From positions 186,001 through 250,000 of the forward strand of contig SADC01001324.1 in the NCBI GenBank assembly GCA_004194705.1: DNA of 64,000 bases. Reading direction: 5' to 3'. Below are positions 3,575-5,488 of the stretch, one piece after another. The stretch's first letter is position 1. Each line of letters opens with the position of its first letter. Under the pieces are notes generated by a model. That model did no database searches and was not told the origin of the DNA. It saw only the letters and a list, made by a program, of their open reading frames with translations. Source of the stretch: Ditylenchus dipsaci (taxonomy: Eukaryota > Nematoda > Chromadorea > Rhabditida > Anguinidae). Made by a program: the position numbers and the translations under genes.

Positions 3575-3628
3575 TTTGGCCCAACGACAAAAGTGCCGTT
3601 TTGGCACTTTTGTCGTTGGGCCTTCCGC
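3575..3628. repeat. Perfect short hairpin
   Basis: 'ggcccaacgacaaaagtgcc' is followed, after a tiny loop, by its exact reverse complement 'ggcacttttgtcgttgggcc'. Such a tight perfect hairpin is most likely the centre of a MITE. The flanking 3412-3570 and 3630-4250 are AT-rich with no gene seen. 4010-4200 resembles the arms of the 43.1-44.0 kb foldback ('ggaggagataacctcatattcgtg'). Confidence 0.6.
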
Positions 3629-4255
3629 CCCTTAATTTTCGAAAGTAACCAAAACACTTTATAAACTGGGGTTTTTGTTTCATACGATAAAAGAAACATT
3701 TTCAACCAGTTGCTAATAAAAAAATACTAACTCTTTTTTTTAAATTGACTCAAAGTCATCTAGGTAGATGATCTTTTCAGGGTATTTTTGACTAAACTTC
3801 GGTCACATATGTAGATTAGGCTTAGGTTTTAGGCAAGGGTAGGCCAGCGTATGTTAGGACGGACTTAAAGATGTTTTTGTTACTTCTTTAGTGTTTAAAA
3901 GCATTTTTGAGCTCGTCCTAACCTACGCTTGTCTACCCTGGCTTAAGCCTGAATGCCTAAGCCTGAAAATTACCAAAAATATTCTACAAAGACAATCGGT
4001 TGCACTGTACAATTCACTCCCACGCGAGTGCTCGGATGGAGGAGATAACCTCATATTCGTGTTTCTCGACCCTAATTTCACGAGAGAGCCCGTGTGTTTT
4101 TATCCTGAGAAAAAAAATTCGAAACAGAGGGGGGGGGGGGTTATCATGATTTTTTAGTCAAAATTTGAAAATTTTAAATGGCACCTTTTGGATTTAAAGG
4201 GAATAAAGGCTGTATAGGGAGGGGAAGGGAATAAAAAGGGCCACTTTCATGGCAT

Positions 4256-5488
4256 TACAGTCGAACCTCTCATTAACATACTACCCCATTAACATACGCT
4301 CTCCCATTAACATACGGCTGGCTAAACTTCGGTTGGTTTGATAAAATTAAGGCAAAATGACCTCTACCATTAACATACACTACCATTAACATACACCTCT
4401 CATTAACATACGGCCAGGCCCGGTCCCGTTCTAACAATTAGCTCTCCCATTAACATACAGTCGAAGCTTTTTTCGAATTTTTTTCGAATTAAACGCTGTT
4501 TCTACAAAAACAATTTTACAAAATCTCAATTTTTATGAAAATTTCGAAAAAGCTTGGGGACCAAAGTAATTTTTTTTTAATTTTTATAAAAAAATTTGCC
4601 TTGGTCCTTTAAAGGGGCATGCCCGTGCCCGACACGGTGAAATTGCAATTTCCAAAAGACGGGGACCATTTTGATGCGTGAGATCAAAAAAGTTCAAATG
4701 AAATGTTTCATTTCAACTGTATTTGTTGTCGTGTATTAGACGTATGCTGTGCAATTATATTGTCTTGCTTGCCTAGCTTATATCTACTTTAGTGCCAACA
4801 TGGTTAATTTATACAGTGATCGGTTTTAGCTAAAGAAGTGGTGCAACGCGTGACATATCGCCGTCGACTGTGCTACAACGCGAAGTCGAAGAAGACCAAG
4901 ATTTCGAAGACACCCGTAGAAGAAATGTGGTGCTTTATCGCGAGAATATTGGAAGGGTGAACACATGTGGAGACACCAGAGTTCGCCTTCATGGGTAAGT
5001 GGCGCTTTATTCAGTTGAGTCTATTTATCTTTTTGGAGCATTACAGATTCAGCCAACGCTGGGGTTTCGAGAAGGACGGATGCATAATACTAATGCATAA
5101 ACACGACAACAAATACAGTTGAAATGAAACATTTCATTTGAATTTTTTTGGTCTCACGCATTAAAGCGGTCCCCGCCTTTTGAAAATTCAAATTTCACCG
5201 TGTCGGCACGGGCATGCCCCTCTAAGGTGTTCTAAATTTGTTATAAAAATTGCCTTGGTCTCCCAAGCTGATTAAACTGAGGAGTGTGTTCCGAAATCGA
5301 CTGAGAGGTGTTTCCGAGATTGACTGTGGGGTGTGTTACGAAATTTGGCCTTAAAATTGAACGGCCTCTCCTATTAACATACACTAAGCTTAATTATGGA
5401 ATCTGGCTGTCTCATTAACATACACCTCACATTAACATGCGGCAAGTCGCGGTCCCAAGGGTGTATGTTAATGAGAGGTTTGACTGTA
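4256..5488. mobile_element. TA-flanked foldback element with nested palindromes and RPL34 cargo
   Basis: The ends are 'TACAGTCGAACCTCTCATTA' and its complement 'taatgagaggtttgactgta', with TA at both borders, as in pogo/Tc1-type insertions. The subterminal zone repeats 'cattaacatac' many times. Nested inside, at about 4607-5227, is a second inverted repeat ('aaggggcatgcccgtgcc' against 'ggcacgggcatgcccctct'). Within that a third set of arms runs from about 4690-4750 to 5090-5165 ('gaaatgaaacatttcatttg' type). The innermost loop, about 4755-5085, is not repetitive and holds an RPL34 fragment. No transposase is seen. Confidence 0.8.
4838..4994 (+). pseudogene. RPL34: Ribosomal protein L34 (eL34) fragment captured in a foldback loop
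   Basis: From 4838 the frame reads VVQRVTYRRRLCYNAKSKK, then TKISKTP. This is the N-terminus of large-subunit ribosomal protein eL34, whose family starts MVQRLTYRRRLSYNT and continues to TPGNR. GTG stands where the initiator ATG is expected. After codon CCC (about 4916-4918) one base appears to be missing. In the next frame the protein continues RRNVVLYRENIGR and VNTCGDTRVRLHG, again like eL34, up to a 'gtaagt' donor at 4995. A weak acceptor at about 5048 leads to a short tail with a stop. The rest of eL34 is absent. Loss of ATG, the frameshift, truncation and position inside a palindromic element point to a dead captured copy, unless the one-base slip is a sequence error. Confidence 0.8.

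What the first reader, a model, noticed from the sequence alone, without database searches (positions are those of the whole stretch)
4607..5227. Ribosomal protein L34 fragment in the loop of three nested palindromes
The innermost single-copy loop of a TA-flanked foldback encodes the N-terminal half of eL34 (VQRVTYRRRLCYNAKSKK and VNTCGDTRVRLHG), up to a splice donor. This shows foldback elements in this genome picking up host exons, including a piece of intron, at the DNA level. If more copies exist, the element is a gene-capturing non-autonomous transposon family.
Basis: partly seen in the sequence, partly recalled or inferred. Interest (0 to 1): 0.78.

Follow-up and report, generated by a model that had tools for sequence, protein, structure and literature searches.

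The report
Nematode transposons carrying whole housekeeping genes
The ribosomal-protein fragment is the worn-out remnant of a jumping DNA element from a nematode family that picked up whole housekeeping genes and spread them through the genome in many copies.

Summary
The loop holds eL34 exon 1, its intron and the start of exon 2 (4838-5059), with ATG changed to GTG and two 1-base deletions. It lies in a TTAA-flanked element (4609-5225) inserted in an unrelated TA-flanked MITE; 32 other copies of that MITE align end to end across the joined flanks with a single TTAA.

The element is one of at least 29 L34-bearing loci read here. In five of them both long TIRs (460-945 bp aligned, 97.7-99.7% identical) hold all or most of the eL34 gene with its intron. 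Same-arm elements carry three other housekeeping genes: uL1/RPL10A, SmD2 and PSMB3. TTAA ends with RR..YY termini fit the Kolobok superfamily; no transposase was found.

eL34 codon variants shared between copies are mostly synonymous (9:2 and 33:8); copy-specific ones are near neutral (11:12, 24:45). The spreading lineage seems to have kept a working protein while single copies, the window's included, decayed. Gene-capturing TIR elements are known; repeated capture of whole housekeeping genes with mass amplification and coding constraint appears to be a new variant.

The parts
4256..4608 (+). left half of an unrelated TA-flanked MITE (TIR TACAGTCGAACCTCTCATTAACATAC; repeated CATTAACATAC motif)
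   Evidence: empty copies elsewhere
4609..4612 (.). left TTAA target site
4609..4760 (+). left arm (TIR) of the eL34-carrying element, starting TTAA-AGGGGCATGCCCGTGCC
4761..4837 (+). leader shared with other L34 elements, with an acceptor-like TTTTAG before the eL34 start
4838..4994 (+). eL34 exon 1, decayed (GTG for ATG; two 1-base deletions)
4995..5046 (+). eL34 intron (GTAAGT...ACAG), same position as in the host gene on C98
5047..5059 (+). start of eL34 exon 2; the match to other copies ends here
5098..5225 (-). right arm (TIR), without a second L34 copy
5222..5225 (.). right target site, mutated to CTAA
5226..5488 (+). right half of the outer TA-flanked MITE

Best explanation
Window 4609-5225 is an internally deleted, dead copy of a non-autonomous, TTAA-targeting TIR transposon family (by its termini probably Kolobok) in a nematode, most likely Ditylenchus dipsaci. 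The family captured at least four complete host genes at the DNA level, introns included: eL34, uL1, SmD2 and PSMB3. In the elements read, the gene's 5' end sits just inside an arm and reads inward; in several eL34 elements the gene is present in both TIRs. SHOWN: structure, several captured genes, copy number, TTAA insertion with empty sites, an arm-free host eL34 gene. INFERRED: capture by template switching or gap repair inside a TIR, spread into the second arm by arm conversion, mobilisation in trans by an unseen transposase. The eL34 reading frame was under protein-level constraint in the spreading lineage, while individual copies, this one included, drift.
For: 29 of 29 L34-element loci read have a family arm on the expected side (in two, L025 and L041, with 1.2-1.9 kb between); C98, C134 and C919 have none in the DNA held. 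TIRs of 739-945 bp at 97.7-99.7% contain the gene; whole frames with a 53-nt intron. Other genes in same-arm elements: SmD2, uL1, PSMB3. TTAA at both ends in 24 of 28 elements; RR at 27 of 28 left, YY at 24 of 28 right ends. 32 end-to-end empty-site matches. No junction-adjacent shared flanks. Constraint: 25 of 28 C1044_L/C919 differences at codon position 3; shared variants 9S:2N and 33S:8N against copy-specific 11S:12N and 24S:45N.
Against: No autonomous element or transposase was recognised, and only five interior ORFs were scanned with Pfam. A TE survey that included D. dipsaci reports Kolobok-T2 only in B. xylophilus and Kolobok-H only in A. besseyi (PMC11118728, passages). piggyBac relatives exist in the genome. 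Junction letters of the empty sites could not be read, only the alignment spans. The tree does not settle whether arm-free C919 is donor, paralogue or escaped copy (AU p 0.23 for element monophyly), so part of the constraint may have acted in a host gene. Some frameshifts may be errors of the PacBio assembly.
Confidence: 0.9

Rival explanations
1. An ordinary host RPL34 gene (or processed pseudogene) with MITEs inserted on both sides by chance.
For: The outer palindrome is indeed an independent MITE.
Against: The same arm-leader-gene order recurs at 29 loci, several with inverted pairs; the intron is retained, so it is not a processed copy; an arm-free host gene exists on C98.
Confidence: 0.02
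2. The element ORFs look conserved only because elements were repeatedly re-captured or gene-converted from host genes, so selection acted in the host and the element genes do nothing.
For: C919, an arm-free gene, groups with the older element clade (ultrafast bootstrap 81) and nesting cannot be excluded. Arm type and gene type are partly discordant, so modules were exchanged. C195, C1285 and C618 look relaxed.
Against: Old and young elements share a leader to which C919 shows no similarity above shuffled controls apart from the last ~20 nt by eye. Young copies are dS 0.37-0.47 from C919, yet variants shared among them are still 9S:2N.
Confidence: 0.3
3. The mobilising family is piggyBac-like or another TTAA superfamily rather than Kolobok.
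For: 117 piggyBac-domain matches in this genome; a TE survey that included D. dipsaci lists Kolobok only in other species (PMC11118728, passages). I raised this from 0.25 to 0.3 on that account.
Against: RR..YY termini are given as the difference between Kolobok and piggyBac (PMC9587614, passage). By coordinates, no piggyBac match lies within 10 kb of an arm listed; those lists are truncated.
Confidence: 0.3
4. Segmental duplications and assembly haplotigs inflate one capture into apparent many copies.
For: The assembly is heterozygous and larger than the flow-cytometry size (PMC6929663).
Against: No pair shares junction-adjacent flanks among those with flanks long enough; L34 element copies differ by up to dS ~0.6.
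Confidence: 0.03

Closest known systems
Pack-TIRs of animals (Tan et al. 2021, PMC8277862; abstract and passages read)
   Same: Host sequence captured between TIRs at the DNA level; multicopy cases attributed to transposition after capture.
   Different: They report 370 Pack-TIRs in 100 genomes, four multicopy ones, median captured size 224 bp, mostly hAT and TcMariner. Here one family carries at least four whole genes: eL34 in at least 29 loci, PSMB3 in about 17, uL1 in about 9, at TTAA.
Turmoil-1 of C. elegans (PMC2572040; part 1 of 2 of the text read)
   Same: Nematode TIR transposon with protein-coding host sequence inside both long ITRs.
   Different: Harbinger superfamily, gene fragments only, nine copies listed, one of them full length; the captured RRM is described as not under purifying selection.
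hAT element with histone H3 in fungi (PMC6710886; abstract read)
   Same: A housekeeping gene captured and amplified by a DNA transposon, to hundreds of copies in P. fijiensis.
   Different: hAT, fungi, copies inactivated by RIP there; a single gene.
Tm1 Mutator/Foldback family of Meloidogyne (PMC3169594; passages read)
   Same: Plant-parasitic nematode, foldback-like TIRs of variable length, possible uptake of host sequence.
   Different: 9-bp TSD, Phantom-like transposase, other termini, no whole housekeeping gene in the passages read.
Kolobok superfamily (PMC9587614; passages read)
   Same: TTAA target duplication with 5'-RR and YY-3' termini; reported from nematodes.
   Different: No Kolobok transposase seen here; gene cargo of this kind is not in the passages read.

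Membership tests
Pack-TIR / Pack-TYPE element | host gene sequence bounded by TIRs of a DNA transposon | tested here: met
Pack-TIR / Pack-TYPE element | parental copy elsewhere, not flanked by the TIRs | tested here: met
   eL34 on C98, and C919. uL1 on C1256 by coordinates only. For PSMB3 (C1347) and SmD2 (C1244) only partial, unread matches.
Pack-TIR / Pack-TYPE element | mobilised after capture (many insertions, empty sites) | tested here: met
Kolobok superfamily | TTAA target site duplication | tested here: met
   24 of 28 elements with TTAA at both ends; 32 end-to-end empty-site matches with one TTAA for the window element; one diverged empty site for L065
Kolobok superfamily | termini 5'-RR..YY-3' | tested here: met
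   RR 27 of 28, YY 24 of 28; rule from PMC9587614
Kolobok superfamily | Kolobok DDD/E transposase in a full-length relative | tested here: inconclusive
   none recognised by eye among printed ORFs; five ORFs scanned with Pfam; no Kolobok query used; most arms not read
piggyBac superfamily | piggyBac transposase in an element with these arms | tested here: inconclusive
   117 domain matches, none within 10 kb of a listed arm, but arm lists are truncated
Mutator/Foldback (Tm1, FB) | 9-bp target site duplication | tested here: not met
   TTAA 4-bp pattern instead
Processed pseudogene | no introns | tested here: not met
   intron retained in copies long enough to show it

The most novel reading that the evidence does not exclude
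The transposon-borne housekeeping genes are functional cargo. Elements whose eL34 (and PSMB3) copy still encodes the protein are the ones that persist and spread, because the copies supply a needed product or shield the element from silencing aimed at transposons. The element would then be a parasite carrying genes that its host cannot afford to silence.
Probability: 0.2. Interest if true: 0.92.

Novelty: new variant of a known kind. Interest (0 to 1): 0.72.

Why it matters
Multicopy gene-carrying TIR elements are reported as rare in animals (four in 100 genomes, PMC8277862, passages). Here one family in one nematode has taken up at least four complete housekeeping genes, spread them widely, and for eL34 seems to have kept the protein sequence while doing so. 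That makes two open questions testable: how whole genes enter the TIRs of animal transposons, and whether cargo genes help a transposon survive in a germline with strong small-RNA silencing.

Tried and rejected
Transposase hunt: of five interior ORFs from L031 and L039 scanned with Pfam, one gave a FLYWCH domain (L039), one a sub-threshold DDE_1 tail (L031), two only insignificant hits and one none. I did not recognise either among the ORFs printed for other elements, but did not search for them. Rfam at gathering threshold found nothing in eight loci or in the window; ARAGORN found no tRNA in the window. piggyBac search: no match near listed arms. The codon-model runs showed likelihoods but no omega in the lines I extracted, so pairwise counts and codon-position tests were used. 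Element monophyly against C919 nested in the old clade could not be decided. C919 upstream against the element leader scored 36, against a shuffle mean of 33 and maximum of 54. Idea rejected: that PSMB3 survives only inside transposons; C1347 carries diverged exon matches with no arm listed, probably the host gene with long introns, not read. Literature searches; no paper on this family appeared in the listings, and only open-licence papers are held. In PMC8903248 (plant Pack-TYPE) a term search for animal, nematode and Kolobok returned no passage.

Full report
WHAT IS THERE. The window is G000:C1289:186001-250000 in a 226,978,389-base, 1,359-contig genome. It is a nematode: the SL1 sequence occurs 58 times exactly, with none for the reversed control; that this is nematode SL1 is recalled. 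The best listed relative of the element eL34 is from Ditylenchus destructor, 83%. Size and largest contig fit the D. dipsaci assembly (227,234,012 bp, 1,394 scaffolds, largest ~3.6 Mb; PMC6929663, passages); this identification is an inference. That assembly is PacBio/CANU, so isolated 1-base indels can be errors.

TWO NESTED ELEMENTS, NOT ONE. The outer palindrome (4256-5488) is a TA-flanked MITE. Joining its two halves with a single TTAA gave a 344-base query that aligns from position 1-9 to 339-344 at 32 other places, at 80-88% identity (62 matches in all, 40 of 239 candidates scored; eight further places match only in part). These are empty sites. The inner element (4609-5225) therefore inserted at a TTAA. 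Its right TTAA reads CTAA.

THE FAMILY. The inner element's DNA matched 106 stretches (40 of 508 candidates scored), and the arm alone gave 434 first-look candidates (40 scored). I read 29 distinct L34-bearing loci, the window's included; all 29 have an arm on the expected side, in L025 and L041 with 1.2-1.9 kb between. TIRs: 739 bp (C1208, 99.7%), 782 bp (C1044, 99.5%), 945 bp (C287, 97.7%), 929 bp (C1188, 98.2%), and a 460-bp stretch (C706, 98.3%). In these five, both arms hold all or most of the gene; in C146, C1138, C1225 and C1200 one arm holds only part. The full TIR contains leader, exon 1 (53 codons), a 53-nt intron, exon 2, stop and AATAAA. Of the 36 element gene copies aligned (arms counted apart), six have the complete frame open without indel or stop: C1044_L, C1044_R, C1208_R, C1138_R, C1255, C1188_R. 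The other 30 are truncated, frameshifted, stopped or carry a small insertion.

NOT DUPLICATED SEGMENTS. In a flank comparison of 42 elements, one pair (L022, L044) matched at the set threshold, and not next to the insertion point. For 11 of the 42 (L063-L073) the flanks held were at most 150 bases, the threshold itself, so the test says little there; for about a third only one flank was compared.

ENDS. Of 28 elements with both ends read, 28 have TTAA at the left and 24 at the right, with RR at 27 left ends and YY at 24 right ends. Kolobok is described as TTAA with 5'-RR and YY-3', which separates it from piggyBac (PMC9587614, passage). No transposase was recognised, so this is a classification by termini only, and a survey of TEs in plant-parasitic nematodes that included D. 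dipsaci names Kolobok only in other species in the passages I saw (PMC11118728).

OTHER CAPTURED GENES. Same-arm elements hold SmD2 (five loci read, L063 and L065-L068; PDB match E 2e-17), uL1/RPL10A (four loci read, L064, L069, L072, L073; E 2.3e-23) and PSMB3 (two loci read in full, L070 and L071, and one exon of four more; E 1.2e-38). The 5' end of the gene lies just inside an arm and points inward. For uL1, 9 of 9 such places have an arm within about 3.5 kb, and two open copies on C1256 have none listed. For PSMB3, 17 of 20 places have arm or leader matches; C996 (two places) and C1347 do not, and C1347 shows a further exon match at 92316-92495, so it is probably the host gene. SmD2 has one match without the arm part, C1244:247632-247745, 76%, with a stop.

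HOST eL34. C98 (with a second, frameshifted copy on C134) has eL34 with the intron at the same position but ~2.6 kb long, and no arm in the DNA held. C919 has a closer, arm-free copy. Element copies differ from C98 by dS 1.3-2.9 and from C919 by 0.37-0.74.

SELECTION. Between the intact C1044 copy and C919, 25 of 28 differences are at codon position 3 (P 1e-9 against one third). Between C1044_L and six old element copies the figures are 22 of 34, 21 of 31, 29 of 39, 28 of 38, 27 of 44 and 20 of 39 (P from 2e-7 to 0.016 for the five tested; the pairs share C1044_L and are not independent). Among 15 young copies, one arm per element, codon variants shared by two or more copies are 9 synonymous to 2 nonsynonymous (P 6e-4), copy-specific ones 11:12 (P 0.05); among eight old copies, the window included, 33:8 (P 3e-11) and 24:45 (P 0.2); the no-selection share of synonymous changes is 0.24-0.30. 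Second arms and C195, C1285 and C618 were left out of that count; these three look relaxed against C1044_L (6-7-9, 7-6-10 and 3-9-10 over codon positions). So the lineage that gives new copies looks held to a working protein, and single copies decay. Against this: gene conversion from a host gene is not excluded, and C919 may nest among the elements, which bears most on the old-copy figures. For PSMB3, 15 pairs of six copies give dN/dS 0-0.30 at dS up to 0.095, on few changes. The uL1 copies read are too alike to test.

MECHANISM. Likely steps: template switching or gap repair places a whole gene inside one TIR; conversion between arms copies it to the other; a TTAA-specific transposase acting in trans spreads the unit; internal deletions such as the window's give short relics. 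Capture and spread are shown by the outcome; the steps themselves are inferred. The convergent gene pairs could also make double-stranded RNA against eL34, a point for the small-RNA test.

NOVELTY. Closest cases are listed in Closest known systems. What stands out is whole housekeeping genes, at least four in one family, many copies, and signs of coding constraint in the spreading lineage. I saw no report of it in the listings, a search of open-licence papers only.

Noticed in passing
G000:C1289:399312-401972 (L070) and C1289:480021-482094: Two further elements of the family with PSMB3 lie on the same contig as the window.
   Followed up: partly
window 4256-5488: The outer MITE with repeated CATTAACATAC motifs is a high-copy family of its own (239 first-look candidates) with a partly self-complementary centre.
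   Followed up: partly
window 3829-3946 and 3578-3622: Two more foldbacks just upstream: 50-nt arms 80% complementary, and a perfect 20-nt hairpin.
   Followed up: no
L039:5799-6077: FLYWCH zinc-finger ORF inside the longest eL34 element, perhaps from a nested element.
   Followed up: no
L031:3778-4212 (-): ORF weakly resembling the end of a DDE_1 transposase, just under Pfam's cut-off, inside another eL34 element.
   Followed up: no
L009 (C919:230176-233343): A second, arm-free eL34 gene with an open frame, nearly identical in protein to the element copies: donor, paralogue or escaped copy.
   Followed up: partly
L072:1839-3036: A 1.2-kb palindrome (96.7% self-complementary) inserted in a uL1 element.
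   Followed up: no
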